Shown here: in pieces, positions 5,265-49,653 of the stretch
How positions within the stretch are numbered: position 1 is the first letter of the stretch
Layout: the number at the start of each line of letters is the position of its first letter
Origin: Clavelina lepadiformis
Lineage: Eukaryota; Chordata; Ascidiacea; Aplousobranchia; Clavelinidae
Direction of reading: 5' to 3'
DNA length: 64,000 bases
Assembly: GCF_947623445.1 (NCBI RefSeq)
Contig: NC_135241.1
Span: forward strand, 3,784,501-3,848,500
Made by a program: the position numbers and the translations under genes
Notes under the pieces: model-generated
Database searches by the model: none
What the model saw: only the letters and a program-made list of their open reading frames with translations
What the model was told of the DNA's origin: nothing

Positions 5265-6418
5265 ATGTCTTCAAGTCGTTCATCGCGAGCAGAAACACGG
5301 AGTCGGGCAAAAGATGACATCAAACGTGCCATGACTGTGTTGGAAAAAGTGAGGAAGTGGTGAGGAATATAAGAAAGGAGTACAAGGAAATAATTTTCTT
5401 CCAGCATCTTTGTCACCAAAACTTAATTCTGTTATTTGTAGCACACAACTTGTTCTCAATAAAGGAACGATCAAATTAATGACTAAAATTTTTGGATAAA
5501 TGTGATTAAATGATGATTGTGATATTTTAATGATTAAAATATTTACATGAATTTGGCCCGTTCCATATTTTCCGTTAAGTTAGACCTTTTAACAAAAATA
5601 CTACCAGTATATGCTTCTTGCCAGATTACTGCTTATTTGTCTATGATTATTTTGGCATTTGACACTTAATAGGGAGAAGAGATGGGTATCTATAGCTGAT
5701 TCATCACTTCGCATTTACAAATGGGTTCCGAAATTAGACAATGGTACTAAAGACACCAAACCAAAACCAGAGACCCCAATGAGTGAGTCTACAAGTGCAA
5801 ATGGCACTGATGAAAATGGCACTCCAGTTTTTCCATCCAATGAGAACTCAAATGACCTCTCAAGTAAGATTAAACTATGTATATTGTTAGTAGAGATCAT
5901 AATGTGTGTAGCGGTAGACGTAATCACCTTTTGCAGTTCACGTCTAAGTTATTTTCCAGGTCAAACAAACACACCTACACCCTCATCTGTGCCCAGTCCA
6001 GTAGACCTTGATGAAAGCTCACGCGATTCTGTGTCAACGTGGCAGGATGAAAAGTCAAGAGATTCGTTATTTAATAATAACAGCAACAGTTCTGATGCAG
6101 CAAATGGTAACGCATTCAACTACATCACTGCATTTTCTGTAATTGATTAATATACGCAAGGATTTAATTGTAGTCTTTGTAGATAGTGTAACTAATATTA
6201 AAAAGCAACTTAGCAGTTTACTGTAAGACAGTAAGACGCCGTTACAATGCATGGTCAATCATATTTTAAAACAGGTGCAGTAGTGATGTTATTCAATGCT
6301 CTTATGAAGCAACGTTTCCTTTGTTTCAGGAAGAGAAATCATACAGAAACGCCCGTTAACCCCATCCTCAACACCTCCTGTTGACCAAGCTATCAAGCGA
6401 ATAAAAAATCAACCTTGA
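5265..6418 (+). CDS. BCL7: BCL7-family protein, SWI/SNF (BAF) complex subunit, complete
   Basis: Small nuclear subunit of the SWI/SNF (BAF) chromatin remodeller. Exons 5265-5359, 5673-5863, 5960-6106, 6330-6418 join through GT/AG sites into 173 residues (human BCL7A-C are about 200-217). The N-terminal BCL7 domain (residues about 1-52) is unmistakable: [20 protein letters not shown], then EKRWV and [10 protein letters not shown]. The rest is a Ser/Thr/Pro/Asn-rich, probably disordered tail with [10 protein letters not shown] and a C-terminal [19 protein letters not shown]. The start is chosen by CACCATG and by the family N-terminus. The first intron splits the conserved Trp codon of RKW. It appears to be a single-copy invertebrate BCL7, so no A/B/C letter is given. 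Confidence 0.95.
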
Positions 6419-9124: not shown

Positions 9125-9133
9125 TATATATAA
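9125..9133 (+). promoter_or_regulatory. TATA box, probable promoter of galanin-like gene A
   Basis: TATATATAA about 100 bases upstream of a good splice donor (AAAA|GTAAGT at 9235) that could end a non-coding first exon. It is 308 bases upstream of the start codon at 9441. The assignment is inferred from spacing and strand. Confidence 0.45.
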
Positions 9134-9440: not shown

Positions 9441-12400
9441 ATGGCAAACTTGTTCGGATATCTTTTACTTGTGATCTTCTGCGCAATAATAGCGTCATCA
9501 AATGGGGTGAGACGATCTTAGATTTTTAACTCTATTGTGTCCATTTATTTCAAATGTATCCTACGATATCAACCTAAAGTATTTTCTTGACCTGAAGTTA
9601 GTATTTTATTATTAGGTTTTATTGAAAGAGCTTTATTTTAAGATTTAAATTCAAACTTGTGTGCGATTAGTAAAGGATAAGCAAATTAGTAACCACCTTA
9701 TGCTTTCTATTCTATCGTTTTAGTGTTTGAGTAGATTTGAGAACGTCAACCAGTGCACAAAACTTATAAACGTATGAGTTTAAAACTGGTAATTAATCAA
9801 AGCAACTCATATCACTGCTTTACAATAAATGGCCACATGTTTGGTCAATTTTGAATTGGCAGAGTTAAGAGTTGTTAATGTTTCATGACGTTGTGTATAG
9901 TTAACCCAGGAGATCAACAAGAGAAATTCAAGATTAAACAAAAGATTGAAGCTTTTGTATCTGCTCGCAGTAAGGGCCGAGCTACATGCTTTGGAAAATT
10001 CTGACTCCTTCACACAATCGCTTTTGAACTTCGTAAGAGCTCGTTTGCATGCTACCGTTGTAGCTTCAAACATAAAAGCAAACCGGTGTCAAGCTAGTTA
10101 TCGGTTTCCTGCTTATTCACTTATTGAAGAAGTAAACTTGGTTGCTGCTACATAATCTTTTTGTTTTATTAAGTTATTAGTTCGAAGCTTTACATTCGAA
10201 AAAGAAGTTCGTTCATATTCATGCTACTTATAGTTACTTATTTGAAAAAGAAGTTATTTACCTACAATACATAGGTAATTGAATAAGTAACCAGGGTACC
10301 GGTAACTAGCTTTACATTGGTAAAAGACAAGGCTGGAATTGGGCACCGCTTGGCAAGGGTAAAAAATATACAGTTCGCATGCTTCTAATAATTGTAAAAC
10401 ACTCACTGCTTTACGAATAACACCATGTAACAAAAATTTAGTTGTGACGATTTTTTAATATTTTCTGAAACATATTACTGAGTAAAACATATTTCTGGCA
10501 ATTTTTTGTCTCAAATGTTGTATAAAAATGTTATTTTAAGCTTTTTAAACTTTCAGTACCCTGTTTTTTCTAACTCTGATTGTAAATTCGTTATAACATT
10601 GGTGCAGTGTGACGTCACAATGGCCCAACATTTTAACTTCATAATTGTAGCCTATATCGTAACAATGATCATTCTTGGCATAGTCTCAGTGAGCCAGTAT
10701 ACCAAGGTTGCAACATTGACTATTTTATTGTTACTGGTATCTTATCAGGTTAATTACAGGTAGCGTGATTCTTGATAAATTGAGGGATGTCATCATCACG
10801 TAAATGTAAGCTGTCTGCTGATAGTTTTTGCTATGTCTGTGGTCTATACATTAGTTTAAAGCAAGTGAAATACAGAATAAAGGTAGAAGCAAAATTTTCT
10901 AACGCTTATGAACTTTATTTTGGCATGAAAATTGGTGACCAAGATAAACACTGGGCACCTCGTGTGATCTGCGGAACATGCCGATCAAATTTGAATGGCT
11001 TGCTTAGAGGAGACCGGCATTCGATGCCATTTGCTATTCCGAGAATCTGGAGAGAACCCCAAAATCATACAGATGACTGCTATTTCTGTATGGTTGACAT
11101 TTCAAGGTTTAGAAGAACTAAAAACCGACGTGACATTGTATATCCTTCTATACCGTCTTCTATTGCACCTGTTTCGCATAGCAGTGAGTTGCCACTGCCC
11201 AAACCACCGAGCAAAAAAGCTCCAGAAGATTTAGCAGGGTCTGAAGATATTGAAAAAGACTCCGATGATGAATTCAACATATCTCATACAGACTTGATTT
11301 CAGAACCACACTTCCCAAGCCAACAAGAATTAAATGATTTAGTTAGAGACATGGGGCTCACTAAGTCAAATGCCGAACTTCTGATTTCAAGGTTGAAACA
11401 ATGGGACTTATTAGATTTGTCATGTCGATGTTCTTTGTCGAGAAAAAGGCATGAAAGATTTTCAAGGTATTTTTCTGTGGCAGACTCTCTTTGCTTCTGT
11501 AGTAATGTTGATAACCTTTTTGAAGAAATAAGAATAGCTCGATCATGACCCAAAGGAGTGGCGCCTATTTATAGACAGTTCTTCCCAAAGTTTGAAATGT
11601 GTCCTCCTTAACAATGGAAACCAGTATCCATCTATACCCGTTGACCATTCTGTCCAAATGAGAGAAGATTACAAAAATGTAAAGTTTCTTCTTGAAAGTA
11701 TTAACCATGCTAGATACAACTCTGTGGAGGTTCGACTTATGCTCCAGTGTAAAGAACTTGAAAATAAAATGACTACGAGAGAAGCAGAAGCATGGAATGC
11801 ATTTCGAGAAGTAGTTAATTTTTTTCTCGGTAGTAAACGAAGCGATGACTATAAAGTTTTGGTGAACAATCTGATGAAGGAATACGAAAAATTGGGATGT
11901 CTTATGTCCTTGAAAATGCATTACCTGCACTCTCACCTTGATTTTTTTAGTCCAAATATGGGTGATGTAAGCGAAGAACATGGTGAAAGGTTTCACCAGG
12001 ACATTTCTGATATGGAAAGAAGATACCAAGGATCTTGTTCCACTTCATTTATTTCTACAATGACAGTGGTGTTCTGATATGGTTAAATGCCAAGTACAGT
12101 ACAAATTATTGCAAAAGAAATGTATGTATTTTTCAGCATTCTTTCCAAGTCTTTAAAGCTCAAAAGTACTCTAAGCAATTGCACAATTCATCTGTTCATT
12201 ATAATCAGTAAAGCAACCCAAATCCGCATTACGTTTCAAGACATATAAAAGCATATAAATAAATATAACAATAAGTTATTGCTTGTAGTCTTAAATTAAG
12301 GCTATAAGGTTTCATAGCTTACATAATTTTTGTCTTTTCTACAAGTCAGTTCAAATGAGTCAAACCATAGACATAGAGCCTACAACGAGAGAAAATAACG

Positions 12401-13200
12401 TGCAAACATGGAAAAGCTACAGCAATGAATGTAATGCTTCGCTGCTTTTCAGGAGGATCAGTTTAAAGCTAGAAAGCTACCTGGAGGAAAAGGTTGGACT
12501 CTGAACAGCGCTGCGTACAATGGTGGCAAGGGTATTCAAATTAAACTTTGAATTGAGTTTCCAATTTACAGTAACTTAAGCTTTTCCTAATCGAAATTTT
12601 GATACAAAATATCCTGTAACCTACATAACACGTCACTCAATATTTCATTTTCAGTCGTAAAATCAAACTTAGGTTTAAATATTTGCTGCAATTTTTAGAA
12701 GCAATACGGCACCTGTATGGCAAAAGAAGTGATCATGAATTGGGTAAGTTTTGCAAACAAAAAAAAATTAAATATGTTTGGCTGTGACCAAGGGTTAATT
12801 CCTTTTAGGTGACTTCGACATTGCTCCGGCCGCAGAAGACGCAAAAAGAACTCAGTTTATTCAAGATTTTCTTCAATTTTTGAAGTTGCAAGGTAAAAAT
12901 AAAAGATAGATACTCAAAACGGCTTAATCAAAAATTTCGTAACACTTGCTTTAATCTAGGGGATTTATCTTGCTTGCTTGCCATAAATCTTTCAAAGGGT
13001 TATTATATAATCAATGGATGGTTTTCCTTAAAATGCAGACACTGCTGTACACAACACAGTTAATATATAACAATGTTTATATTTTAAGTACAAACATATT
13101 TAAAACAGGATATTTTTGCTTATTAGAAAGCGGAATATTCGACCAAAAAATGCTGCGCTACATACTGTCACTCTCGAATGACCAAATCACTCAACCATGA
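9441..13200 (+). CDS. Galanin-like neuropeptide precursor A
   Basis: Secreted neuropeptide precursor of 115 residues. Exons 9441-9506, 12453-12531, 12699-12743, 12809-12892, 13127-13200; phases 0,1,1,1. Residues 1-22 (MANLFGYLLLVIFCAIIASS...) are a signal peptide. Exon 2 has an Arg-Lys site followed by LPGGK and the galanin core GWTLNSAAYNGGK. Exon 3 adds EAIRHLY followed by Gly-Lys-Arg, an amidation and cleavage site. Exons 4-5 encode FIQDFLQFLKLQESGIFDQK, matching the vertebrate GMAP block (IIEFLSFLHLKEAGALDR in human, from memory). The intron after core residue 13 matches the vertebrate galanin gene. Ligand for galanin-type GPCRs is the family role; function here is inferred. Intron 1 (2.9 kb) contains a dead transposon gene. 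A possible ATTAAA poly(A) signal lies at 13380-13385. Confidence 0.9.
10787..12077 (+). mobile_element. Decayed transposon-type gene in intron 1 of galanin-like gene A
   Basis: Two open segments, 10787-11548 and about 11544-12077, lie in different frames and together read as one protein. The first carries a Cys-rich N-terminus (FCYVCG, VICGTCRSNLNGLL, MPFAIPRIWREP, DDCYFCMVDI) and FPSQQELNDLVRDMGLTKSN. The second continues DPKEWRLFIDSSSQSLKCVL and ends VSEEHGERFHQDISDMERRY. I recall near-identical motif strings in a large uncharacterised transposon-like family annotated in Hydra and arthropods; I do not know its standard name. Compared with those, the central part after the HSVQM motif is missing (roughly 100 or more residues), and the junction needs a frameshift. 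No terminal repeats were found. It is an inactive copy, not an exon of the host gene. Confidence 0.75.
12477..12718 (+). other. Predicted mature amidated peptide of galanin-like gene A (spans intron 2)
   Basis: The coding part is 12477-12531 plus 12699-12718. It is bounded by Arg-Lys upstream and Gly-Lys-Arg (12719-12727) downstream, giving a 25-residue peptide that begins LPGGK, contains GWTLNSAAYNGGK and ends EAIRHLY-amide. Processing is predicted from the dibasic sites only. Core residue 8 is Ala where vertebrate galanin has Gly. Confidence 0.75.
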
Positions 13201-14653
13201 AGGATTCTTCTGGTGACGCAATGAAATTGATGAAGACTTTATTGTGTTTAAATGTATTTGTGTAATTTCAAAGTTACAATGTAGGTGTCAAAATACATTC
13301 TTGTAAAAACGTTTGTACACAGAGTTTTTGTGCAAAGAAAAATCTTGTGCTGTATATCAACGACTTGATTAATTCCGTCATTAAATTAAATCAGAAAGCA
13401 AAAATAAGTCAAGTGTGTTTGGTGTCACTCGAAAAATATGTTTTTGCTTTCGTTTGACTACCATAGTATTGGAGTTTACTTTGCATCGCACTCTCAATAG
13501 AAATCACATATCGCAAATATTCAAGTTTTATTCAGAAACAAATATTTCTGGCCAAGAATGACGTTTCTTGACGTAATTTTTCACTCAATCACTCAATCTG
13601 GAAAAGTGTTTTTTCAATAACTATATCAAAATATAATGCACGTGGCCTTTGCACGCAACTCGAGCAAGCCTAACGCAGATAAGCTTTGCCTTATCAATAT
13701 ACAGCACGTCAGCAAATTATTTCCAGACGAGAAAAACAAAGCAAAGATAAATATTTCCACGCAGTGACAGCTTGTCGTTATCGACGCACAGTATTTGCTT
13801 TCACGCTTATCACACCTACCAGTACAGTTTTCAATACCGCCGACAAGGCTTTGTTTACAGAATGAACTGATTTCACAAAATTGCTTCAGTGATGCACATG
13901 CATTGCAAATAAAACGTCGACTGTTACATATGGCTTGCCTGACCTTACGTCTTATTGGAATTTGTAAGAACAAATACTCCGGATTGTGTTCTGTCCTGCT
14001 ATTGCGTAACCGGTTTTATAAATGTGACCTGATTTTGACCTGCAGTTTTGTTTATGTTTGGTCTTTGACGCATAAAATGTACATTTAAAAAATTATTGTT
14101 AAAGGTTGCAAATCAAAATGCAAAATCACCGAATAATTAAGGCAGACATTATAGTACTTGCTATAGCACCGACCGCAAGGTAAATTTAGGTATGTTTGAA
14201 ATTTTCAAGGCACTATAGCAGCACCTAACGAATGTTTCAAATGTCAGTTAGTTTATAGATCAACTGCATGGAGTTGTAGCCTAGCTTACTAATTTGTAAA
14301 ATAATTGTGCTCGCATGGTGGCATAGCCTACACCTTGTAGTGTCAGTTTTAGCAAAGCATGAAACTCTTATATCCGAATTTGTATGGTTAAATCTTATAA
14401 CTGTAGTAAACCCAGGTTGCGATTTCCGACAGGTTGTATAATGAACAGGGTTATACAACCACCAGAACAACAAATTAGCAAGTAGGATATTTCTGGAAAT
14501 TTGATTTGCGTTTGACGTAATCTTAGTACTATCAAACCAAAAAGGATGATAACGTTGGAAAGATAATCTATTTTATCGATCTTTTCATGCGAGTTGTCCT
14601 GGAAGTGTAACAATAAACGACAAAAACAAAGAAGGCAATGTGGAAAAGACCTT
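13201..14653. other. 3'UTR of gene A and spacer between the two galanin-like genes
   Basis: No coding exon recognised. An open frame on the minus strand at 13626-13973 has no recognisable domain, signal peptide or family motif and is taken as chance. Confidence 0.5.
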
Positions 14654-14661
14654 TATAAAAA
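14654..14661 (+). promoter_or_regulatory. Possible TATA box of galanin-like gene B
   Basis: TATAAAAA, 248 bases upstream of the ATG at 14902. A pyrimidine-rich acceptor (TTCTTATTCTCAG) ends at 14844, so the 5'UTR may be spliced. Inferred from position only. Confidence 0.3.
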
Positions 14662-14901
14662 TAGGAAAAGAATTTGATGCAACCAAACCAAGGTATTGGC
14701 CATTGCGTCAGTAGAATGAAAATTAGATGCACAATCAATGCTGAAAGCGTTACGTGTTGTCGTGAAAATGTGGCGATGGAGATCGACGGTTTAAAAATGG
14801 TTTTATAGATTATGAAACTATTTAAGCAACTTTCTTATTCTCAGGTAACAGAAAGACTATAACTTTCTTAAGAAATTATCAATCCATCAAGAGTATTTGA
14901 A

Positions 14902-16099
14902 ATGGCAAGCCTCAACGTACGTTTTTCCACCTTAGCCGGATGCTTGCTAATAGCATCTTTAATATGCTCACAGGAAACAGAGGTAATAGAAACACATGTT
15001 ATTTATATAAAAATAAATAATATCGTAAAAAATTGTACAGTTAATTTTTGTGTGAAATATATTTCGACTTTAAGATTTTTACATAGTTTTTCTTTTCTGT
15101 GTTTCGAACAGGCAGTCGGTATTGTACCTCGAAAGAGCCACAGGCCATCTGGGTGGACTCTAAACAGCATAGGGTATAATGGTGGTCTTGGTAAGATAAT
15201 CACATGTGCACAAAAAAGTTTAATTTTCCGAAATCAAAGCAGATACCCTGATAAGGGGGTTAGACAACTTAACGCAACTTTAGCAAAACGATAATATCAG
15301 ACACCGCTATGGTTGCCATTTCATAAGCGACAATGTAATCATACAATTACTTGACTTACCAATATAAGTAATATGCTGAGAAATAAAAAATATAAACATT
15401 TTTGAAAACTGAAATTTGCATTTTTTAGGGGCACTTCGAAAATTGTTCGGAAAAAGGGACGGTACGAGCGTTGGTGAGAATTAAAATGAAGATTAAACAT
15501 TTTAACTAATTCTTTGAGTGAAATGCAAACCTTTGTATACGCAATACCTTGTAACTACAGACAATATGAAATAGACTATATGGCAATGTTGGTGCTTCTA
15601 CTACTATCTTTGAAGAACATTTTATATTCCCTTAGATACCGAAGAAGATGAGTTAGTATCTGATGTCAACATAAATGAAGGCGCCATGAATGAGTTGGTT
15701 CATGACTTTGTTGAATTTTTGAAACTGAAAGGTGAGATTATTCCAAAACTTTTAAATGTTTCCGGAGAAAAAAGTAATACAGTGGTCTACGAAACGATAA
15801 GGTTTATGTAGGGCACTTGCATCTATGCAATGATGTATTATAAAAACAGATGTTCTAGCACGGTACTTCATATTTGTGTAACTGTAAAAGAACCTGTGTA
15901 AAAGATATGGGTCAGCAATGCATTGTTCGAGTGGTCTACTTACAAAATTATTTATTGCTGATATTGAATCAAAACAAATGTTAGCTGTAATTCGGGTTTT
16001 ATTTCAGCCAGTGGACGTCTTGGGCCCGAGGTATTGAGATGCATACTAGTCAACATGCAAGAGCAGGGCGAAGAAGAGCCTGAAACTGTTGCTGAGTGA
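14902..16099 (+). CDS. GALP-like: Galanin-like neuropeptide precursor B
   Basis: Secreted neuropeptide precursor of 130 residues. Exons 14902-14982, 15112-15190, 15429-15473, 15636-15731, 16008-16099; phases 0,1,1,1, the same as gene A, with exons 2 and 3 of identical length (79 and 45 nt). Signal peptide within MASLNVRFSTLAGCLLIASL. Arg-Lys in exon 2 is followed by SHRPS and the core GWTLNSIGYNGGL. Exon 3 continues GALRKLF then Gly-Lys-Arg. The C-terminus has LVHDFVEFLKLKASGRLGPE, equivalent to vertebrate GMAP. The peptide closely resembles the Ciona galanin-like peptide I remember, which makes B the more conserved of the pair. It lies 1.7 kb downstream of gene A on the same strand. It might instead be called galanin; vertebrate GAL and GALP are paralogues, so neither name is strictly right. 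Confidence 0.93.
15136..15448 (+). other. Predicted mature amidated peptide of galanin-like gene B (spans intron 2)
   Basis: The coding part is 15136-15190 plus 15429-15448. It lies between Arg-Lys and Gly-Lys-Arg (15449-15457) and gives 25 residues: SHRPS, then GWTLNSIGYNGGL, then GALRKLF-amide. There is an internal Arg-Lys in ALRKLF that might also be cleaved. Confidence 0.8.
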
Positions 16100-25100: not shown

Positions 25101-28100
25101 CAGCAGGCAAGCACAGTTTGTATAAAGTGGCAGATATCGTGCACAATACTACACCTTTATATAACTTGTCGTGCAAAGTAATACCAATGTACACCTGCTG
25201 GCCGTCTTGATTGTTTTCAGCCGGCGCACACGCTTGGACGCTGTCGGCGCGATGAGGTAACGTTGTGGTCATATGTCATCGTGGCATCCTCCAAAGACAT
25301 TCTATACGTCAAATGTCGCCGATGTTGAAGTGGCGCCGATTTTACGGCCACGTCGGACGTCGTTTGTGTTGCCTATTTGTTACCATATTTACCCAAGTTT
25401 GACGGACCGATTAAAAAATCGCGTTATCTGTAAATAAGTCCGCGTTTAAGTGTTTCTTCTGTAAGCTATAGTCGGATGTCTCCTTTGTCTGGTTACTATG
25501 TCGGAAGTTTAGACAATGGGCCGTCACAGGTCGCCCGTATTTTCTTTGTGGCGTTCTCCTATTTCTAATTTTATTTTCTTGTAACTGAGCGAAAAACTCT
25601 ACTAACCCTAGGCCTTGGCGCCCAACTAGTTATCTTATAAAGCACACAGCTTCGCAAGCGTGTACTTTATTGCAAGTAACACGAGTCCAAATCGCTGACT
25701 TTCGTTTGTAACTTGACGTTATTTCGGTCACGATCTAACCTGACTCGTTTTTATTTTTACAGCCTGTTTTAACTGCACGTCGGTGGCCGAGTTACGAGAA
25801 CAAGTGGAAGAATTATCACGCCAGGTAAATAATGCCTCGTCCGTTTATTGGACTAACCGATATCCATCTCATGCTTAAGTAAAAGGTCGCGGTACTTTGA
25901 ACACTTTTCGTGTATTGTTGCAAATTTAACATATTCATGTGACGATTTCAACTGAAATTTCCACTCAACTTTGGCGTCCATGATCTGGAACTTTAAGATG
26001 CCAGAATCGACGCTTAAAACAGCGTCAAAGCCTTATACCGTTTGCAGGGTTAAATTTGCAGCATTTGAACAAATCAAATTAGGGCCCTAGCGATGGATTT
26101 TATTACAAATCCCAATAATCCCCCGTCGGAAGCATGCTCGCAATACAGGGAAAATGGAAATCAAACTCATTTTGTTCTTTATTCTTTTATAAGTGAGCAA
26201 ACCAAGACATGCCGTGTGACTTTATTGACAATATTGCACATATCATATACGTTATTTTAAATTTACCAAATACATATAATAACCATACCCCAAGCGTGTA
26301 ATGCGCCAAAACTTGTTTGATGTATTTATAAGGCTCCCAGAAGTGATTGGCAGCGGCATTTAAGCCGATTACATTTAACCGCTTTTGATGAAACATAACA
26401 AGCCATTTATACAGTTGTTAGAGCGTGTAGCGCCTCACCACAAGAGAGTCTTTAGCGAAACGACATAAGTAGATCGTTTACTTTGACGGTATTAATACAG
26501 CTGCCCGGGGTGTAGATGCTCACCGTCCACAAATGTCTACAGGTTTATCTTCGTTTGAGTAATTTATTGCGAATCAAAGAAAGAATGCGGCCTTTTGTTG
26601 AATTCGACTAACGTGTGGTCATTAAAGGGCCATAAAATGATTGTTAAAGCTTGTATGTTTGTGTATGCGCTCTTTAGAATTTCGTTACGTTAACAACAAG
26701 CTTAATTCCAGTTTTATTCCAGATTTGCTGAGTAGATGATTATTCGTTTCTATCCGGATTCGGTTTTATTATATTCGGTTATAATAACGTTCATTTATTT
26801 ACAACTTCTGCCGTAAATAGCAGACCTTTATATTTTATAATGCAGATGAACTTTGCCGGAGAGAACGGAAACACCGATGCAAGCGTTATCATAAACGGTC
26901 AGCAAGGTGTCCGGGGACCACCTGGTCCACCCGGTTCTATGGGTTTGCGTGGCCAACGAGGACCTAACGGTGTCAAAGGAACCAAAGGCGAGCAAGGTAC
27001 CATGGGTTTAAGAGGATTCCCAGGTGTTGCAGGACCACCTGGGATCAATGGTACAAACGGAAAGGACGGCAGGCCGGGTCCGATAGGTCCTGTGGGTCCA
27101 GTTGGTGCAAAGGGAGAAAGAGGGCTGCCAGGTACATGTAAGCTCTGCTATGGGCTATTACCGTTTACAATTCAATAATCTGTTAAGATATGAGTCACCC
27201 ACAAAGCTAATTTCCTAACCCAAGTCTTTACCTATTAGGTTTACAAGGAGGTCGCGGCATTAAAGGAGAGGTTGGTTTACCAGGATTAGCAGGCGCAAGA
27301 GGTATGCTTTAGCCACACCCATTCATGTTAGTTAACTCTGCGATGTGCTGGTTATCAGACAGATGCCGTCATTTGTTTTGTCGGTAAATCTCCGGAAATC
27401 TTGTTTGATCTGGCCTTACCATGTCTAAATGCGTATAATGCAACTTTTATTTGATTATAAACAAAGAGAGTAAATGCGCTTTCGGTTGTGTCGCCGTTGT
27501 CGCCGCCACACTGATGTCTCGTAACGCCGTAATCGTATATCAATGCTTAACTGATACAAGCTTATGAACGGTGCATTTGCGCAATCTTCCAAAATAAAAG
27601 ACGTCAGACATTACTGTAATTTACACTGGTACACCGTGCGTTACCCCTTTGCACGCCTAACCCGTTCTTGATTGTCAAGGTCAAATTGGCCCGCGCGGAC
27701 CGACCGGAGAAAATGGTCAGCGAGGCGCTAAAGGAGAGACAGGTCTCCAAGGAGCTCCCGGACCACAAGGAATTGCAGGAATAGGAGGGGCGACCGGGCC
27801 ACCTGGTCTGCCTGGTGTCTGTGGATGCCAAATAGGTGGGCAGTCGACCCAAGCGCCAGGCCCTATCAACGGAGGTATGTAAACAACTTTCCCAGAGATA
27901 ATTAACTTGTCATTTGGAAATAAGTTCTGTCAAAGTCCAGGCGACAGCGATCTCTGCGACAGAATTCGTGAACAGGCCACAATCCGTGTGCTATGCATGG
28001 AATCTGAGAGCAGTTTAAACTGATGTTTTGCGAAATGTTTTTGCTTATACAGAATATGCAGTCCACCTACAAGTTGGTCGTACAAATAGAACTTGTTTTA

Positions 28101-31100
28101 ACGTTATTACTTATTACTGCACTGCATGTTTACATATATTTTGTACGTTAATTCTGGGAAATAACTCGCAAATCGCGCAGCGTTAAATGAAGAAAGAATT
28201 CAAAATGCAAAGATTTTTTCCAACAGCTTCTATATGTTTTTGCATGCAGGGTCGAATTAATGGTTTGATTTACAGCACGATACGCTCACGAAATTTTTCA
28301 TCACCGCCAGTTATTCACGTACTGCTCTGCTGTCAGTGTCGAAGCAAAATAATCTCAGCAAACTTAGAACTTTAATTAATAGCCGAGCTATCAGTGCTGG
28401 ACTGTTGTGCTTGAAATTTTGGTTCCGTAAGCGCACGAAGATTGCGTTGCTGGATGTCTAGATTAAGCACGTTTCCCGTCACTCTTAATTTAATTTTGAA
28501 ACCGGCGGTATCTTTTTAAGCTACGACATCGCTTTGAAACCTTATCATGGTCTCGGCAGGACACATTGGGCGTTTACCCTGGCTTACGTCATGTGTTGAT
28601 CAGGACATGATAATAGCGCGGTCGCCAGTCGTATTTGAAATGCAGTAGGCCTTTACAATGACTATGACCTTTTGCAATCAATTACTACCCGTTGCTTATG
28701 CTCTTACGGCCTATATACTTTTAAAGAAAGCCTTAACTATTTCAAAAAGTTTACCGACACATAGTGCTTTGCCAAATGAAATTATGTAGCTTTGAAATAC
28801 AAACTCTGGTAAAAGTGTTTAAAGTTGGAAAATGATTTCAGGAAAGTTATGTGTTGAGCAATCAGTGCTTTTGTCATGTGCACACTTTGTTTAAATTGGT
28901 TAAGTTTATATGGTCCTTTGTTTCAATGGCAATCACACAATAGGGCTTCAACCTGAGAACCTGGCTGCAGGCGATCATCCTATCTACCCCGGGCCGGCAA
29001 CCGTCGATTTTTGCGCCAGCAAGCTTTGGAAGAAACTGGTGACCGAGTTAAGCTGTGACTTTGATCAAGAGAACAAGTTGTCGCTTCCTGGCCGGCGCCT
29101 TCGTAAGCGCAGTGGCCGTCCACTTGATGGGAATAACGGGACCAGGCGAAAGGGTGGGACAATGTGCTTGTTCGACACATCGAGTCACCCTGCAAGCGTT
29201 GGAGAATGGAGAGTGGAAAGTGGACTCGGTGTTTCTAAAAGCAAATTCAGAACGTTTAGTCGCGAGTCAACGGTCGATGATGAAGATTACGCGATACTTC
29301 CTTCATTTGATATTCCTCAGTATGATCTACCTCTTTTTTTGACGATTGATTACTCCTTAACGACAAACCATTACCTTATATATCACGCACCTACCTCGAG
29401 GACTAAAGGCAAAGCGGTTGCCAGAGCTTTCAGTCCCTTCTTCACTAACACACTGCAGGGAATTTGTATGACTTTTCGTTACCTCATACGCGGCCGGCGC
29501 CTGGCGAACTCTGGCCTGCTGGTCTATCTGTTGCCTTGCAATTCCCCGTATCGGATACCCATCCTTGATCTAACGTCGCTACCAGACAACCAAACTGGCT
29601 TCTGGCAGCAGGGCACGGTGCCACTGCCCGATTACACTCGGCCCTACCAAGTGATTTTCGAAGCCAGGCCTGGAAGAGGCAATTTAGAAATCATAGCAAT
29701 TGACGACGTGATATTTTCGTCGTGTGGTGAGTGACCAGTACCTGGTGCGGTGTTGTTTGACAGTGCTAGGTCACAAGTTGAGCTCCTTTATGCACTCGGC
29801 GATGGCTTTCGATTTTCGCGAAAATTTTAATCAGTCAAACTAAAAAGAGCTTAAAGACTGTAAGAAAAACCCATATTTTTCACACACGGGTGAGAATGTT
29901 TATCGATGACTTTACACAGCAGAGAAAGATGAAGATGTCGCCATTCCGCCATGCGTTGAATTGGCTCAGCCAAGCTGCTTAAAACTACAATAACATGTTA
30001 GTCAAAGTTCAAAGCACGTGCTAACTACAGCTAAAACGCTTTTATTTGGTCACAGTCTTGCAGCCGACCAAGAGCTCAACTTGTTAGATGCAATCGCAGT
30101 AGCGGTGTTGATTTTCAAAATAAAATTAACTCGGAATCGCTTTGACCTTTTCATGTAATTCTAACCTCACTAGCCGCTTTTCTAATTTTAACCTTGCAAG
30201 GTATTAGTGGGGTGTGAGCACCGGTTGCAAATTGTAGCGGAATGCTCTCACATGATCAGCTTTTGCATTTGTGCGAGTGTTAATTGCCTGCTTGTGGAAA
30301 TGTAGAGTTTGAATCACGCACTTGGAACCCCACGACACAAGCTATCCTAATTGCGTACGAATGTAGCTTTTTTGCTGTTTGTACATTTCACCAATCTTTG
30401 TAAGCTCTGTTTGATTTTTGTAACTTAACTGCGTCATCCTCTCGAAATAGTGCAGATATCGTTTGCTCTTAAAATCCGTTTTACCATCGTTTAGCTGAAT
30501 TAGTTGTTTCGTAAGCCGATTCAATTTTACCGTTATTTATGGGTTCTTTTTAGGCGACTCACTTCGTTAATTCATGATTAAACGTTAATTACGATTACAT
30601 TATGCTGCGCAACGTCAAGTCTTTGGCTTTGGCAAGCTCGTGCAAACCTTATTTTCATCATCAACACAAATACATTTCCTCAGAAAATTGGCAACTGCAA
30701 AATTAATACAGTCTTGCAGCATTCCGAAGCTGCAAAAATGTTTCTACCAATTGTCGAACGGAAGTTAAATTCCGGATGCATTTAATGATAATTATGGCAG
30801 CAAGGCACAATACCCTATAAAAAAATTCTGTTGCGCAAGCAGGTTTTCACCTGTTTTGAAATGTCTCTCAGGGACAATATATAGCCTTTGCGTGTTGGAG
30901 TAATTGTTGGAAGAGTTTTTCAATGAACCCGCTATAGGTTGTACGTTGGCCAATTGGATTGCAATGCAAAGCGTAAGCTTATGAAGATAAATATAAGCTT
31001 GTTTTGAATTTTAGCTACAGCTCAATAATTTGACAATTTTTACGCCACACAAATTAACAAACATAGACAAATAATTAGCATGGGACTGCATGGTGTTTCT

Positions 31101-34100
31101 GCATAGCGTTGCACTTGTGTAGTTTGGTCATATTCAATCAATCTTCATGACTTTTGTAGCAATTCCTCATGTATCATTATCACGACATCATTAGTTGCAA
31201 ACGAAATTATAACGTCATCTGTTTACAATGCTCTTATCACCAAGTAGCAGGTTATAAAGCGATAGATTGTTGTAGAACTGTTTCGTAGAGGCATGTCGCT
31301 TTCAAAGGGCGGTGAAGGGAATTTTAATGCTAATATCTTTTCCAGGCTCCAACACTTGTCTTCACGATGGCGTCACTTACAAAAACGGCGACCTTTGGAA
31401 AATTGACGACTGCAAGGAGTGCATGTGTGTGGATGGGGTTGTGGAATGTTTTCCGATAAAATGCGCCTCAGAAAACACTTGTCGGTACACTTACAAACCG
31501 TTCGGATATTGCTGTAGCGTGTGTTGCCCTAATCAAGAGTACACAGAGAGCAGTAAGTTAACCTTTTTAAAATGCTTGCATTCGATTGTTTACGTGCCTG
31601 ATCGAAACTTCGACGTTTCTGCAATAACACTGCATACCCGTAGTATTACAGTCCCTTTAAAATGAGCTAAATTTGTGTCCGCGTATCAAGCAGACAGTGG
31701 TAGCGGGTACGATGGGTCTGAAGAGACTATCGGCGGAGAGAAATCGAACACCAATTACACTTACATCCCCTCTTATCCCGATGATTATGACGAGTACGAA
31801 GAGGAAGAATATCCTGAGACGAAGCACGGTTTTGATCCCCTTGGCTGCCCCATAGCAGCGCTGGCCGGCCCAAGCGTTAGAGCATCATCAAGTATGGTTT
31901 TAAGCTTTAACGTAGGGGAGCTTTTCATCGTTATGAGCGACTTGAATTCGTTATCACGAAAAAGTGTCGAGCGAGACTAAAATACAAAACGCGACATTAT
32001 CTAATCACAGAGAGGGAACAGTGTACAAATTGCTTCTACTACTGAACCGAAACATCGAGACTTGCCCCTATGATTCCCACGCAGTTTAAATGTGATATGA
32101 GGTTGATAGCCCAGGAAAGCAATTGAGGGTTTAAAATAACCCGCATTCGGGCGAACGAGCTAATGACGCAAATTGCTCCAAACAACGAACACGTCGCAAC
32201 CTTAAAGTGTGCAAAGTACATGCCGGGTAGAAAAAAGATAGTATCGCCATTTCCACATGGACCTTCACAATGTGTACAATTCTAAGTACATTTTTACACC
32301 TTTCAAAATTGACGATATCGTTGAGCTTAACGATTTGTTAATGACGTAACTTCGTCAAGGAGCATTTCTATTTTATTTGTGCTAAAACTGAGCTGTTTAC
32401 GCGGTTATTTAACGCTGTGACATAGTCCGTCCGACATATTGATCTTAGTCATTGACCTCAGGAAACAAGGTGAAATGACACATTGTACATGAATTTTGTT
32501 CGCCATAAGACAAGCTACACCAGAAACAGCATTACACACAGAGCTGCCTATCACAAGCAAATATTACGTTAACTGAGTCATGAAAAAGCGCCACTATGCT
32601 ATCGATATTTCGGAGCGGCCGGCAAAACCGGCCAACTTCATGTAGCTCGAAGCCGGAAAGATTTGGTAGACAAAACAGACAATCTTATTTACATCACAAA
32701 CACTGCGGCAGTACTCGTGGCGCGGTTTCACTCGCACATCTAAGTGATCTAATGCTGGAAGAAATTTGTCAAACTTAAAAAATGAGCCAAGTTTGTAGTG
32801 AAAGCAACCCTTTTCGTGACGAATCACTTATAATGTGACAAATCCGTGTCGTTTTGTCAAGTATCGGTTGCAGGCGGAGAAAAAAAAATTCATGACTAAC
32901 TCCGTCGGTTTTGTTTGGTCAAAACGCAATGTGAATGCATAACATACAAACGGGAAACTTTAAGTTATGTTTAAGTGCGTTTAATGCTTGAGAAATGGAT
33001 GGCTTCACTTATAGGTTAGTTGAGTGAATGTTCAACATAAATATCTGAATGGTTAACTAACGGCCAAGTTAACTTGCAGATGAGGATGCGGTGTGCACCC
33101 TTCGTAGAGATCCCGGCCCTTGCAGGGGAAGATTTACCAAGTATTACTTTGACAACGACACGAAAACCTGCAAGACTTTCACTTATAGTGGATGTGAGGG
33201 AAATTCAAACAACTTTGACTCCGAAGAAAAATGTCTGCGCATGTGCCTGCGATCGTCAGAAACTTCCCGGGATGCACTGGTGCATGAGAATCCACCTCCA
33301 TCGAATGACGTTGCCCCGCAGAATCCAAGTATGCCAGTCGTGTGATGGTAAAAGTGGGGCTCAGAAATATTCGCTTCCAGTTAACATACACACAGTAAAA
33401 GAGTGCACACAATTTTCAACAAATTTTTTACGTTTTTATTGTTTGATCATAATCGCAGGTGATGACGTAAGACCGATTCGTGCAGCGCGTTGCAACCAGC
33501 CAAAAGAAGTAGGCGAGTGTAAGGCAATAATGCCACGATTCTACTATGACCAAAGAGAAGGCAGATGCAAATTATTCACGTACGGTGGATGCAACGGCAA
33601 CGATAACCGCTTCCTAACACCGTGGGCTTGTCTCGATTATTGCGGGGGCGGGAACCCGGTATACGCGGAGGAACCCGAACTACCACCCGCCCCTATCCTT
33701 GTACAAGACCAAGTGGTTGAACGTACGTGTGGAGTGAATCTGTCGTAGTAAAGTATTAAATTTTTCGGCAAGCCCGTCTCCATTCGCGCAGTATACAAAC
33801 AAGATAATATTTTAACTTGTTTACTTACAGGTGTCAAGCCGGCGAAGTGTTTTCTGCCTAAAGTCACCGGTAAATGTCGGGCTTCTTTTGTAATGTTTTA
33901 TTACAACCCCACAACCGATAAGTGTCAGCTCTTCGTTTACGGAGGCTGCGGTGGCAACGAAAATAAGTTCGAGATTCCAGAAGACTGCCAGAACGAATGC
34001 GGAGGAGAAATCAGCAGAGAGGTTGAAAGAGAAGATCTCACAGTCGAAACCAGGAGTAATAAACCAATTTCTTACGGAAGAAACGGAGGAACTCAAGAGC

Positions 34101-36298
34101 GGGGTGTGCTTCCGACGTCCCAATATGTCCTTATGCTGGTATCGCGGCAATTCAAACCCGACAGTCTTAAGAATTAGAATTAGGACTTAAACTGTCGGGT
34201 TTGAATTGTCGCGTACCCCTTGTGCTTATTTATACATATGACCTCTTGACCAACTCCTTGATACAAGCTCTTCTTTGCTGTTTGTGATAAATATGAATTT
34301 TATTCACGAAGATCCTTGTAATAGTTGAAGGCAATTTTTGTTCTGCAGAAGCAAGGAACCCTGAATGCCAGTTTGCACTGGACGCTGGACCTTGCAGAGG
34401 TCGATTATATCGTTACTACTTCGATAAAAAGTCGAGTAAATGTTCCGTGTTTCTCTATGGAGGATGCAGAGGGAATGCAAATAACTTTGAGAGCGCCGAG
34501 GAGTGCAATAACACCTGTGGAGGAGACGGATTCAATTTTACTATTACGTTACAAAGCGATCTTGAAGGTATAAGGACCGAAACATGTTCCCATATAAAGG
34601 TAGCCATAATGTATAGGTTCCGATTGTCAATAGTACAAGACGTGTTTTCGCTACAGAAGAGCGAAATAGGTCCCCGGATAGCGAAGTAATTCAGGGAGCA
34701 AGAGGTCCTCCAGGACCACCAGGACAACAAGGTCCGCCTGGAGTTGGAGAACAGGTACTTGATCTCTTTGATTTATTTCTACATAGTTATGAAGATGTGT
34801 CGTCCACGCTAATTGCAAGCATGCATGATACTTTAAACCTTTTCACTTTATCATTTTTTTGTTTTGTTTTGTCAGGGTCCACCGGGATCACCTGGACCTG
34901 TGGTACGTCATTTCATCATCATGTCATGTTGATTATTAATTTGGTTCGCTGGCTTCGTACTTCTTTCCTGCATACTTTCATTATGTTCATTGTTCATGCT
35001 TTAGTTGTTACAGTTAATAGTAACTTTTATAATGCATTTATATACTGTATGTTGTGGTTTTAATTTCGGTTTTCTTTTTAGGGTCCACCTGGATCTTCCA
35101 AACTATCGGTGAGTAGTCACGTGATTTAACCACTCGGGTTTTTAAATCTATTGTTTTTGCCGGCTCATTTTCACAGATCTATATTAAAATTCCAGCACTA
35201 TATATGCTCAAAAAAAAGGCATAAAATACATTGTTTTTAGAAAAAATTCAAAAAACTTGAAAAAGAAGTCAATGGCTATTTCAGAAGAATACATTTAATC
35301 CTGATAGATTTTCGAAAACGCTTAAGTTTCGTAGAATTAGATCGAACTAGCGATAAGAACAACGACTTCAGTCAGTCACAAAACAAGACATCACAGTCTG
35401 GTAATCACCAAACGTCCAAAAACGCACCACGAATCCAAATTTGCAACACCTTAGCTTTATTTCTAAGTGCTGTACGTTTTGCATGTTTATTGGCATGTTT
35501 TCACTCGAATGCAGGCTGAAGAACGTGACGAGTTCTTGTCTTTGAAGAGCACGATAGAAAGCATGCGACAACGCCTACGTTACCTTGAAACGCATTTCCT
35601 TACAAGTCAACTACCCGAAGGTACACGTATATGATGCATGTGTTATGCCACAGGCAAATACGAACTTAGGCACCGGTAACCAAAAGATTTCTGGATAACA
35701 ATGCTTGAGATGACGCCAGTTCAAGGCAGCATTTGGCGGCTGTTCCAAAAGTAGGGACAAAAGTGCACAGTTCTAGCATTTAACAAGCTAGTAACGCAGC
35801 TTTGGCATAACCAAGCTATACAGCGAGTATATTTACTTGCCAAAGCACGTGCCGATCGTAGTGGTATGGCACATTTTGTTCAATTGAAAAATGGTAGAAC
35901 AACCGCTGATTCGTAGCTTATTGAACAGGTGACAAGACAGCCAAACAAGTCCCGGACGTAGTTGCACCAAGAGGCAATTCCGTAAACAAGAACTCAAAGT
36001 TTAGTGAGGTAGTAAGGGTAAGTAGTAGCTACGGCATACCGATTCATAAAAATTGCTTAATACAACATTATGTTCCCACACCCCACCTGTAGTCCGTAAT
36101 AAACAGTGTGATTAAGGAAAGCCACAGGAGAAAAGTATTTCTATGTTATTTTAGTTTTCTGAGGAGTTTTTTGCCATTTTCCAGGCCGCTCCATCGGGAA
36201 GAGGGGACAGTGCAGGTTTACTCGGCCAGTCGCAACCAGATGCAGATGAACCTTATTATTATTACGTGGCGGAAGAGACATCACAAGACACCCCGTAA
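19182..36298 (+). CDS. EMI-collagen-MAM-VWC-Kunitz(4)-collagen extracellular matrix protein
   Basis: Predicted secreted matrix protein of about 1252 residues. Exons: 19182-19297, 22870-22953, 23629-23820, 23937-24040, 25763-25824, 26846-27131, 27239-27301, 27680-27874, 28944-29726 (start uncertain; 28971 also fits), 31346-31552, 31691-31891, 33080-33328, 33459-33722, 33831-34103, 34349-34567, 34657-34754, 34876-34902, 35082-35108, 35515-35620, 35929-36017, 36185-36298. Domains: signal peptide 1-27; basic and Arg/Tyr-rich segment to 67; EMI 90-163; collagen about 201-350; MAM 403-628; VWC 633-690; Kunitz 770-820, 859-909, 942-992, 1033-1083; collagen about 1113-1146; heptad-like segment 1151-1180; Tyr-rich tail. 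EMI plus two collagen segments is the plan of EMID1/COL26A1; the MAM, VWC and Kunitz block between them is not. The frame is open through all junctions, which argues for one gene, but transcript evidence would settle this. Confidence 0.86.
19298..22869 (+). other. Intron 1 of the EMI/collagen gene
   Basis: A 3.6-kb intron. No exon, repeat boundary or RNA gene recognised. Open frames at 22050-22391 (minus) and 20429-20650 (plus) show no domain and are treated as chance. Confidence 0.5.
23629..24040 (+). other. EMI domain module (exons 3-4)
   Basis: Encodes the Cys-rich EMI fold: GRYCAYP, then QCSWSSLYC, then [19 protein letters not shown] and the end SGPKCEE. WRCCPGFxGxxCEE is the signature of EMILIN, multimerin and EMID proteins, where the domain supports multimerisation. 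Exon 5 (25763-25824) follows with a Cys pair and a short Glu-rich helix. Confidence 0.93.
26846..27874 (+). other. First collagen triple-helix segment (exons 6-8)
   Basis: Gly-X-Y repeats from [18 protein letters not shown] to [11 protein letters not shown] in three exons with phase-1 boundaries. It includes GAKGERG and GIKGEVG stretches with Lys in the Y position that could be hydroxylated. It ends in a Cys-Gly-Cys that could cross-link chains. Confidence 0.95.
28944..29726 (+). other. MAM domain module (exon 9)
   Basis: A single large exon. After a linker of about 35 residues come [15 protein letters not shown] and GEWRVESG, then [20 protein letters not shown] and a final [20 protein letters not shown] followed by DVIFSSC. 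Cys and aromatic positions fit MAM domains of meprins, receptor PTPs and MAMDC proteins, which mediate adhesion. The 5' splice acceptor is not certain because the polypyrimidine tract is weak at both candidates (28943 and 28970). Confidence 0.88.
31346..31552 (+). other. VWC domain module (exon 10)
   Basis: One phase 1-1 exon encoding a chordin-type Cys-rich repeat: [28 protein letters not shown], then GYCCSVCCP. The CxxCxC and CCxxC motifs are those of von Willebrand factor C domains, known in several collagens and in BMP-binding proteins. Confidence 0.92.
31691..31891 (+). other. Acidic Tyr-rich linker (exon 11)
   Basis: Encodes a Gly/Ser segment followed by [19 protein letters not shown]. 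Tyrosines next to acidic residues are typical tyrosine-sulfation sites. The 5' acceptor is a CAAGCAG tandem, so the exon may start at 31691 or 31694 (one residue difference). Confidence 0.8.
33080..34567 (+). other. Four tandem Kunitz (BPTI-type) domains (exons 12-15)
   Basis: Each domain sits in its own phase 1-1 exon with all six cysteines: 33080-33328, 33459-33722, 33831-34103, 34349-34567. The residues after the second Cys (inhibitor P1 site) are Arg (GPCRGRF), Lys (GECKAIM), Arg (GKCRASF) and Arg (GPCRGRL), and each has the FxYxGCxGNxNxF motif. All four look competent for trypsin-like serine proteases by family rules. Exon 12 needs the donor at 33329; reading past it meets a TGA. Confidence 0.94.
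34137..34217. repeat. Near-perfect intronic foldback (hairpin) in intron 14
   Basis: The left arm at 34143-34165 (CGCGGCAATTCAAACCCGAC...) pairs with the right arm at 34191-34213 with one G-T wobble in 23 positions. After a single bulged C the stem continues five more pairs (TTAAG), leaving a loop of about 14 bases. Partial pairing extends outward to GGTA/TACC. It is about 75-80 nt in all, the size of a pre-miRNA, on either strand. It could also be a tiny foldback element. Confidence 0.8.
34657..35108 (+). other. Second collagen segment (exons 16-18), with two 27-nt mini-exons
   Basis: [20 protein letters not shown] is followed by GPPGSPGPV and GPPGSSKLS, the last two each in a 27-nt exon at 34876-34902 and 35082-35108. 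It is a short triple helix of about ten Gly-X-Y triplets, then an [20 protein letters not shown] helix in exon 19 that may form a coiled coil. Confidence 0.88.
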
Positions 36299-48400: not shown

Positions 48401-49653
48401 TTTCCGGTTCATACACTTGCTAAAAGCGAGTGACGATCATCTCCCGGAAATTATCATCACCGCGAACTGAGGCCGCTTACGAACGATATCAATATACTGG
48501 AGATGCAGAAGTACCTTGAGTTTGCAATGGAACGTTTTCATTGGCTTGCTGCTGCTGTTGTTGTTGTTGTTGTCGTCGTCGTTAGCCTGTTTCTGTTCAC
48601 TTTTGGTTTTCATGTTTTAACTTTGGTCATTTTGGGTATTTTTTGGCAATTTTGAGTCCTTACCAAATTTTTTTCCGTCTGCTGCTGTAATTGTTATCAC
48701 CTCCGTTTTCTGCCTCAAACGAATATTTTTCCGCGCATTAATTGCCTGACGTGTTTCGCCTTTTCAAAGGTTTTCGGCGTAAAGACGTTCTGTTTGATGA
48801 TCATGTAAGAACCTCTTTGTACGTTTTATTTTCTTAATATACGGATTGGCTGTTGTTTTATTCTATTATAGTATGTCCATGTTATGCTTGATATTTCTTT
48901 GTTTTGGCGCTGTTTCTTGCTACAAATAATATGCTTGGATTGACTTTCACGAATTGTTGTAACCGTGTTTTTAAAACCCGATTTTAAATATAACATTATC
49001 TCAAGAAACTTAAAAAGTTTACTAAATTGCTTTGCAGTTTGTTCAATGATGCTCCCCAAGTTCGGTATCTATTTCAACAGCTTAACGTCCCACAAGATGG
49101 TGAAATAACCGCGGAAGATTTGAGAAATAATCCTAAAATGATCGGACTTGCCATGAAGTATGTCGCTTTGGAGTCGGTCGTCATTTTACCAAGCTGACAT
49201 TTACTGTAATGAGAAAAATTATTTTTAGAACCGCTTCAAGTATTGCAAAGTTTGTTGAAAACGTTGAAGATGATGAAGAAGTGGAAAAAATGACAACGCA
49301 TTTGGGAAAATTCCACGCCAAAATAAATGTGAAGCCTGAACACTTTGAGGTATATGTTCATAGATCGAAAGATTTTCAAAGTAGAACTGAACAAAACCGG
49401 ACTGTCTCGTTTCAAATCGTTCTAATTTGAGTACTTCTTTTGGGGCGATTATTAAGTTATTGTGTTTAAAGCAATCTTACGCACATAATTAAGTCATTTC
49501 AATACTGTGCTTATTCACACGCAGCATTTGGCTCCGGTTCTTTTGAAAATCATTGGTAAACATTTCAATTTACCAGAAAATTCTCCAACTTTGCAAGCCT
49601 GGGCACAGGCCTATGGTATTCTTAAAGATGGAATTGTAAGTCACTATCCATAA
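45492..49653 (+). CDS. Globin, complete, with Leu at distal E7
   Basis: Heme protein of 155 residues. Exons 45492-45589, 49038-49157, 49229-49349, 49525-49653. Intron 1 (phase 2, after YH) is at B12.2 and intron 3 (phase 0, HFE|HLAP) is at G7.0, the two ancestral globin positions; an extra intron cuts the E helix. CD1 Phe45 (RYLFQQL) and proximal F8 His102 (LGKFHAKINVKPEHF) are present. Position E7 is Leu70 (NPKMIGLAMK), where vertebrate hemoglobin, myoglobin and neuroglobin have His; the 32-residue E7-F8 spacing equals neuroglobin. The H helix ends GILKDGIVSHYP with a stop in exon 4. No signal peptide: cytoplasmic. Subfamily is uncertain. An upstream in-frame ATG at 45381 is probably in the 5'UTR intron. 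Confidence 0.95.
45724..46126. mobile_element. Degenerate inverted-repeat element in globin intron 1
   Basis: The right end GGCGGCTTATATTCGAGAAA plus ATACGGTAG, reversed, reads CTACCGTATTTTCTCGAATA followed by TAAGCCGCC. The left end CTGTATTTCTTCGGATGTAA plus GTCGGCGGC is a mutated version of the same sequence. The inner parts repeat TTTATTTTTCTTCTCG / TTTATTTTTCTCCTCG. This fits an old MITE of about 400 bp. No clear target duplication. Confidence 0.6.
46127..49037 (+). other. Remainder of globin intron 1
   Basis: The intron (45590-49037) is 3.4 kb, far longer than the other two. Apart from the element above and a triplet tract at 48548-48583 (GCT, then GTT, then GTC units), nothing is recognised. 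Minus-strand frames at 46947-47222 and 47185-47427 carry no family motif. Confidence 0.5.
48548..48583. repeat. Triplet microsatellite
   Basis: About twelve triplets: GCTGCTGCT, then a run of GTT, then GTCGTCGTC. It lies within globin intron 1, so it is non-coding. Confidence 0.9.

What the first reader, a model, noticed from the sequence alone, without database searches (positions are those of the whole stretch)
9441..16099. Tandem pair of galanin-like neuropeptide genes
Two complete precursors lie head-to-tail 1.7 kb apart with the same five coding exons, the same phases and identical lengths for exons 2 and 3 (79 and 45 nt). Each encodes a 25-residue peptide with a GWTLNS core between Arg-Lys and Gly-Lys-Arg. 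As far as I recall, a single galanin-like peptide is known from Ciona, so a tandem duplication in a tunicate is probably undescribed.
Basis: partly seen in the sequence, partly recalled or inferred. Interest (0 to 1): 0.85.

Follow-up and report, generated by a model that had tools for sequence, protein, structure and literature searches.

The report
Tandem galanin-like neuropeptide genes in tunicate
A sea-squirt genome carries two neighbouring, diverged genes that each look able to make a galanin-like brain peptide, a kind of peptide already known from the sea squirt Ciona; this is a sound new example of a known neuropeptide family rather than a new kind of system.

Summary
At 9441-13200 and 14902-16099 lie two complete five-coding-exon precursor models in the same orientation, 1.7 kb apart, with intron phases 0,1,1,1 in both and exons 2 and 3 of 79 and 45 nt in both. 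Each encodes a signal-peptide-like start, a 25-residue GWTLNS peptide between RK and GKR, and a C-terminus resembling vertebrate galanin message-associated peptide (GMAP). The precursors are 39% identical; introns and upstream DNA are alike only as shuffles. So this is an old tandem duplication, not two haplotypes. No third gene was seen, but a diverged one could have been missed. Copy 2 matches the Ciona galanin-like peptide at 18 of 20 core residues, copy 1 at 12 of 20. The genome also holds one clear galanin-receptor-type gene. Six contig lengths fit the published Clavelina lepadiformis assembly (an inference). Expression, processing, amidation and activity are untested, and whether other tunicates share the duplication could not be tested. 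Galanin-like peptide in a tunicate is known; I found no description of a tandem pair in the open-licence papers searched. New member of a known kind; moderate interest.

The parts
9125..9133 (+). TATA-like sequence upstream of copy 1, followed by a candidate non-coding first exon ending at 9234 (GTAAGT donor at 9235) and an acceptor before 9426
   Evidence: read by eye in the sequence; not tested by RNA
9441..9506 (+). copy 1 coding exon 1: start codon and signal-peptide-like stretch (MANLFGYLLLVIFCAIIASSNG)
   Evidence: 12-residue mean hydropathy up to 3.1; no signal-peptide program available
10784..12074 (+). remnant of a high-copy repeat inside intron 1 of copy 1 (frames 10784-11545 and 11538-12074), somewhat under half of the 2946-nt intron; not part of the gene
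   Evidence: the second frame has 151 matches in the own genome with only 150 of 1563 candidates scored; nearest other copy 97% identical
12453..12531 (+). copy 1 coding exon 2 (79 nt): RK cleavage site and GWTLNSAAYNGGK
12699..12743 (+). copy 1 coding exon 3 (45 nt): rest of the peptide and GKR
12809..12892 (+). copy 1 coding exon 4: GMAP-like domain, first part
   Evidence: Pfam GMAP on the joined protein 17.6 bits, E=0.0042, below its cutoff of 25; shuffle test
13127..13200 (+). copy 1 coding exon 5: GMAP-like domain, end, and stop
14654..14660 (+). TATA-like sequence upstream of copy 2; an acceptor-like site before 14845 suggests a 5'UTR exon or a spliced-leader site
   Evidence: read by eye in the sequence; not tested by RNA
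14902..14982 (+). copy 2 coding exon 1: start codon and signal-peptide-like stretch (MASLNVRFSTLAGCLLIASLICSQETE)
   Evidence: hydropathy up to 2.63
15112..15190 (+). copy 2 coding exon 2 (79 nt): RK cleavage site and GWTLNSIGYNGGL
15429..15473 (+). copy 2 coding exon 3 (45 nt): GALRKLF and GKR
15636..15731 (+). copy 2 coding exon 4: GMAP-like domain, first part
   Evidence: 75% over 48 nt with copy 1 exon 4 and its donor. No Pfam GMAP match for copy 2
16008..16099 (+). copy 2 coding exon 5: GMAP-like domain, end, and stop; AATAAA/ATTAAA-type signal at 16195

Best explanation
The locus holds two separate, intact galanin-family precursor genes that arose by an old tandem duplication in the tunicate line. 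Each makes a secreted pre-pro-peptide. Prohormone convertases are expected to cut after Arg-Lys and after Gly-Lys-Arg; carboxypeptidase and the amidating enzyme would then leave a 25-residue peptide amidated at Phe (copy 2) or Tyr (copy 1). These would act on the one clear galanin-receptor-type GPCR encoded elsewhere in the genome. Copy 2 is the conserved one, nearly the Ciona galanin-like peptide. Copy 1 has diverged in the peptide but keeps the reading frame, the cleavage sites and the GMAP-like domain. Shown from sequence: open gene models, cleavage motifs, homology, duplication, receptor gene. Inferred: expression, processing, amidation, receptor activation, function.
For: Same five coding exons, phases and two exon lengths; both open from ATG to stop with GT-AG introns. 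Precursor similarity 0 of 2000 shuffles, C-terminal halves 0 of 5000. Ciona GALP core identity 18 of 20 (copy 2) and 12 of 20 (copy 1). Human GAL: first exon 5'UTR only (PMC9367524); signal in exon 2, galanin in exons 3-4, GMAP in exons 4-6 (figure legend of PMC12811797), the same layout as here if the candidate 5'UTR exon is real. In the 23-residue peptide core, codon positions 1, 2 and 3 are identical in 18, 18 and 10 cases and 7 of 15 conserved-residue codons are identical, as expected of old copies held by selection on the protein. A receptor model on C4 (from 6527264) returns galanin receptor 1 (7.1e-62) and 2 (1.8e-50) ahead of kappa opioid (5.9e-36) and kisspeptin receptors (5.9e-35). 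Ciona GALP raises calcium through its receptor in HEK cells (PMC11345136 passages).
Against: No transcript evidence was available. The Pfam matches (Galanin 14.4 and 11.5 bits, cutoff 20.5; GMAP 17.6 bits for copy 1, cutoff 25; none for copy 2) are all below curated cutoffs. A genome search with Pfam GMAP found nothing, not even these exons, and its controls did not ring either, so it says nothing. PDB searches with the peptides gave galanin at E=0.6 (copy 1) and the galanin chimera transportan at 0.72 (copy 2), with unrelated proteins ranked higher. GWTLNS is no commoner in the genome than its reversed controls. Genome searches with each precursor did not find the other copy, so the two are near the limit of detection. 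The donor of copy 1 exon 2 (GTATTC) is weak. The Ciona peptide ends in LFE with no amide stated in the passage, so amidation may not be ancestral. No comparison with other tunicate genomes was possible.
Confidence: 0.85

Rival explanations
1. Only copy 2 is a working gene; copy 1 is an intact but silent or decaying duplicate, disturbed by a repeat in its first intron.
For: Peptide of copy 1 is the more diverged (12 of 20 against Ciona); intron 1 is 2946 nt and holds a repeat whose nearest relative is 97% identical; weak exon-2 donor.
Against: Copy 1 keeps the frame, a hydrophobic N-terminus, RK and GKR sites, usable splice sites and the better GMAP match although its introns have diverged beyond recognition.
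Confidence: 0.1
2. One complex locus: since all intron phases agree, the two sets of peptide exons could be used as alternatives behind one promoter, giving two peptides from one transcription unit.
For: Phases 0,1,1,1 in both copies make cross-splicing in frame.
Against: Each copy has its own start codon, hydrophobic start, stop, TATA-like element (by eye) and downstream polyadenylation-type signal.
Confidence: 0.05
3. The two copies are haplotypes of one gene wrongly laid end to end in the assembly.
For: Nine haplotypic duplications were removed in curating the assembly that fits this genome (PMC10884593), so others could remain.
Against: 39% amino-acid identity; introns and upstream DNA alike only as shuffles; different intron lengths and no N in the window.
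Confidence: 0.01
4. The peptides belong to the spexin or kisspeptin branch rather than galanin.
For: The three families are held to share an ancestor, and the human spexin gene also has six exons (PMC6593056 passages).
Against: GWTLNS is the galanin start while spexin is NWTPQAMLYLKGAQ; a GMAP-like C-terminus; the receptor model is closest to galanin receptors 1 and 2, ahead of the kisspeptin receptor.
Confidence: 0.03

Closest known systems
Ciona galanin-like peptide (Ci-GALP, PFRGQGGWTLNSVGYNAGLGALRKLFE)
   Same: N-extended GWTLNS core; copy 2 identical at 18 of 20 core residues, copy 1 at 12
   Different: One peptide appears in the passages I read on Ciona; here are two genes. Both copies here end in GKR, predicting an amide, where the Ciona peptide is written with a final Glu. 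The N-terminal extensions differ.
Vertebrate galanin precursor (GAL)
   Same: GWTLNS, Tyr 9 and Gly 12, a GMAP-like C-terminus, signal exon / two peptide exons / GMAP exons
   Different: 9 of the first 13 residues match and little after that. Five residues precede GWTLNS in both copies. Pfam scores are below the curated cutoffs.
Vertebrate GALP
   Same: six exons and a GWTLNS-type peptide (the N-terminal extension of GALP is recalled)
   Different: GALP is 60 residues; human GAL and GALP lie on chromosomes 11 and 19, so the tunicate pair is a separate, local duplication.

Membership tests
galanin-type neuropeptide precursor | GWTLNS at the start of the galanin core, with Tyr 9 and Gly 12 | tested here: met
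galanin-type neuropeptide precursor | Pfam Galanin model above curated cutoff | tested here: not met
   14.4 and 11.5 bits against 20.5; only profile positions 1-12 and 1-9 of 29 matched, as the second half of the peptide differs. I keep the wider name galanin-like for this reason
galanin-type neuropeptide precursor | GMAP domain after the peptide | tested here: inconclusive
   copy 1 17.6 bits, E=0.0042, cutoff 25; copy 2 no match. Against a recalled human precursor: 0 of 5000 and 3 of 5000 shuffles. Genome search with the model: nothing, controls silent too
galanin-type neuropeptide precursor | signal peptide and basic cleavage sites around the peptide | tested here: met
   RK and GKR in both; hydrophobic N-termini; no signal-peptide program was available
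galanin-type neuropeptide precursor | GAL exon plan | tested here: met
   coding exons match the human plan as given in a figure legend ([quoted passage not shown] The non-coding first exon and the human intron phases were not tested
galanin-type neuropeptide precursor | activation of a galanin-type receptor | not testable with these tools
   a receptor-type gene exists in the genome
spexin | NWTPQAMLYLKGAQ-type mature peptide | tested here: not met
   peptides read GWTLNS...

The most novel reading that the evidence does not exclude
The tunicate line made its own galanin/GALP-like ligand pair by tandem duplication: copy 2 gives an N-extended, GALP-like peptide, while in copy 1 the Lys just before GWTLNS (R-K-L-P-G-G-K-G-W, with a basic residue at P6, a rule for monobasic sites that I recall) is cut and frees a short peptide starting at Gly 1 like true galanin. 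The two would then be separately regulated, or differently active, ligands of one ancestral receptor.
Probability: 0.12. Interest if true: 0.65.

Novelty: new member of a known kind. Interest (0 to 1): 0.42.

Why it matters
[quoted passage not shown] A GMAP-like domain and a GAL-like exon plan in a tunicate suggest that the whole precursor layout, not only the GWTLNS motif, predates vertebrates. Two ligand genes with one clear receptor gene in a compact genome give a simple natural system for asking how duplicated neuropeptides divide their work.

Tried and rejected
Haplotype artefact: rejected. A third gene: precursor searches at E up to 10 found only the exons of the copy searched with, plus one match at E=6.5 on C9; but neither search found the other copy, so a third gene as diverged as these would have been missed. 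Patterns for every coding of GWTLNS gave one further place, C6:7413849; its frame has stop codons just upstream and reads GWTLNSGKRLPLYM, with no galanin-like continuation, and I take it for chance. A search with Pfam GMAP was uninformative. Gene-order evidence for orthology with vertebrate GAL: the upstream neighbours are beta-hexosaminidase-like (Pfam gave nothing for that frame) and BCL7-like; I recall no link of these to GAL. PDB searches with the peptides were uninformative; the top matches of the copy 1 peptide were designed ankyrin-type repeat proteins (E down to 1.4e-05, no single stretch passing). The best single match of human galanin receptor 1, a gene with one long open frame at C6:18.61 Mb, was set aside as the receptor because its own best matches are somatostatin receptors. 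The next relative of the receptor model, at C3:7.94 Mb, was judged from its letters to be another rhodopsin-type receptor and not searched further. Age of the duplication relative to the Ciona split: not resolvable, as no Ciona precursor or other tunicate genome could be reached.
Full report
What is there. Copy 1 runs from 9441 to 13200 and copy 2 from 14902 to 16099, both on the + strand, about 1.7 kb apart. Coding exons are 66/79/45/84/74 nt and 81/79/45/96/92 nt, intron phases 0,1,1,1 in both. Other splice choices also stay open; I chose those that make the copies agree. The proteins are 115 and 130 residues. Each has a hydrophobic N-terminus, an Arg-Lys site, a 25-residue peptide with GWTLNS, a Gly-Lys-Arg site, and a further 57 or 67 residues.

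Is it chance? The motif alone would be. Three patterns that together cover every coding of GWTLNS give 0, 2 and 1 matches in 209 Mb, against 1, 3 and 0 for the patterns read backwards. Two of the three matches are the copies; the third, on C6, has no galanin-like context. What goes beyond chance is the rest: the two precursors score above all of 2000 shuffles and their C-terminal halves, without the motif, above all of 5000, in two gene models of matching phases. Protein searches of the whole genome with each precursor found the exons of that copy and, for copy 1, one chance-level match at E=6.5. Neither found the other copy, so these searches cannot exclude a third gene as diverged as the two.

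Duplicates, not haplotypes. Identity is 39%. At the DNA level the longest direct repeat of the region is 48 nt across exon 4 of both copies, 75% identical. The four intron pairs score within the range of shuffles (25, 27, 132 and 170 of 200 shuffles reach the observed score), as do 400 bp upstream (61 of 200). The window has no N. Over the 23-residue peptide core, codon positions 1, 2 and 3 are identical in 18, 18 and 10 cases; over a 33-residue GMAP-like block in 17, 25 and 15. This fits an old duplication with selection on the protein, although two sequences allow no formal test.

Which family. Pfam finds Galanin in both (14.4 and 11.5 bits) and GMAP in copy 1 only (17.6 bits, E=0.0042), all below the curated cutoffs. 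The shared block reads FLQFLKLQESG / FVEFLKLKASG here and FLSFLHLKEAG in the recalled human sequence. A genome search with Pfam GMAP found nothing, these exons included, and its controls were silent, so it tells nothing. For human GAL, PMC9367524 (passages) gives six exons, the first 5'UTR only, and a TATA box; [quoted passage not shown] The legend's plan is the plan here, if the candidate non-coding exon upstream of copy 1 is real; I read it by eye (donor GTAAGT at 9235, acceptor before 9426, TATA-like sequence at 9125). Tunicates also use spliced-leader trans-splicing (recalled), so the acceptor before each start codon may serve that instead.

Relation to Ciona. PMC11345136 (passages) gives the Ciona peptide as PFRGQGGWTLNSVGYNAGLGALRKLFE and reports that it raises calcium through its receptor in HEK cells. 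Over the 20-residue core, copy 2 matches it at 18, copy 1 at 12, and the two copies match each other at 13. PMC12441681 (passages) places the peptide in the dorso-caudal Ciona brain; PMC7002689 (passages) mentions its expression in the alimentary system and its receptor in heart; PMC8149874 (passage) says its receptor has been identified. The lamprey galanin paper used the Ciona precursor as root of its galanin tree (PMC6753867, section 12 read).

Receptor. A multi-exon gene on C4 from 6527264 holds the segments of highest identity (43% and 49%), although intronless-looking genes on C6 have better single E-values. A joined model of four exons retrieves galanin receptor 1 at 7.1e-62 and 2 at 1.8e-50; kappa opioid receptor follows at 5.9e-36 and the kisspeptin receptor at 5.9e-35. 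A genome search with this model (22 matches at E up to 1e-6) finds, after its own four places, the next at 1.6e-16. So two ligand genes face one clear galanin-type receptor gene; more distant receptors are not excluded.

Species. Six contig lengths seen (C1 28,783,666; C2 26,529,800; C4 25,070,715; C5 24,617,235; C6 20,771,506; C9 15,725,681) fit the published Clavelina lepadiformis chromosomes of 28.79, 26.54, 25.07, 24.62, 20.77 and 15.73 Mb (PMC10884593, passages). Four of six agree to rounding; C1 and C2 are about 0.01 Mb short. C3, C7 and C8 were not looked at. The totals differ (209.06 Mb in 95 contigs against 210.1 Mb in 102 scaffolds). The name is therefore an inference, but a strong one.

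How it most likely works. Two secreted precursors, cut at RK and GKR and amidated, give two galanin-like peptides for a galanin-type receptor. Gene models, cleavage motifs, homology and the receptor gene are shown from sequence. Expression, processing, amidation and signalling are inferred. Copy 2 is likely the carrier of the ancestral role and copy 1 the diverged partner.

Is it new? Of ten literature searches, seven bear on galanin in tunicates (the last from 2015 on). No held paper contains both 'galanin' and 'Clavelina'. Of the papers listed I opened 13, by passages or one section, and no passage describes two galanin genes in a tunicate; the others I saw only as listings. PMC4489612, PMC5818035 and PMC7909313 (passages) had nothing on tunicate galanin genes. 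The library holds only open-licence papers. The 2011 Ciona peptidomics paper I saw only as a cited reference; the 2019 Ciona receptor paper and a 2013 bilaterian neuropeptide paper are not held. So 'undescribed' is probable, not shown. I file it as a new member of a known kind.

Changes after checking. Searches were added: they complete the motif count, add one chance match on C6, and add one uninformative family search. The limit of the precursor searches is now stated.

Noticed in passing
10784-12074: A repeat remnant sits in intron 1 of copy 1; one frame of it has 151 matches in this genome with only 150 of 1563 candidates scored, one of them 97% identical, so this insertion looks recent.
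   Followed up: partly
L036:1264-5489 (G000:C4:6526001-6532500): A galanin-receptor-type GPCR gene modelled with four coding exons; the DRY motif at the end of TM3 reads DRI across an intron.
   Followed up: yes
L016, L017, L023-L026 (G000:C6:18.58-18.62 Mb): A cluster of GPCR genes with single long open frames; the one tested (L016) is closest to somatostatin receptors.
   Followed up: partly
L047:1501-1517 (G000:C6:7413849-7413865): A third place in the genome that codes GWTLNS, with stop codons just upstream and no galanin-like continuation; taken for chance.
   Followed up: partly
2070-2504: Fragment of a beta-hexosaminidase-like gene (a 59-residue part matches PDB 5bro at 1.8e-14; no Pfam match for the frame).
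   Followed up: partly
5647-6147: BCL7-like N-terminal segment (Pfam BCL_N, 5.4e-08).
   Followed up: no
26732-35060: Frames with collagen, MAM, VWC and Kunitz domains in a row on the + strand, possibly one large extracellular-matrix gene (further Kunitz-like and collagen-like frames read by eye).
   Followed up: no
40745-41224 and 49137-49427: An APH-type kinase fragment (2.5e-06; no PDB match at E up to 0.1) and a weak globin-like frame (0.00032, just under the curated cutoff).
   Followed up: no
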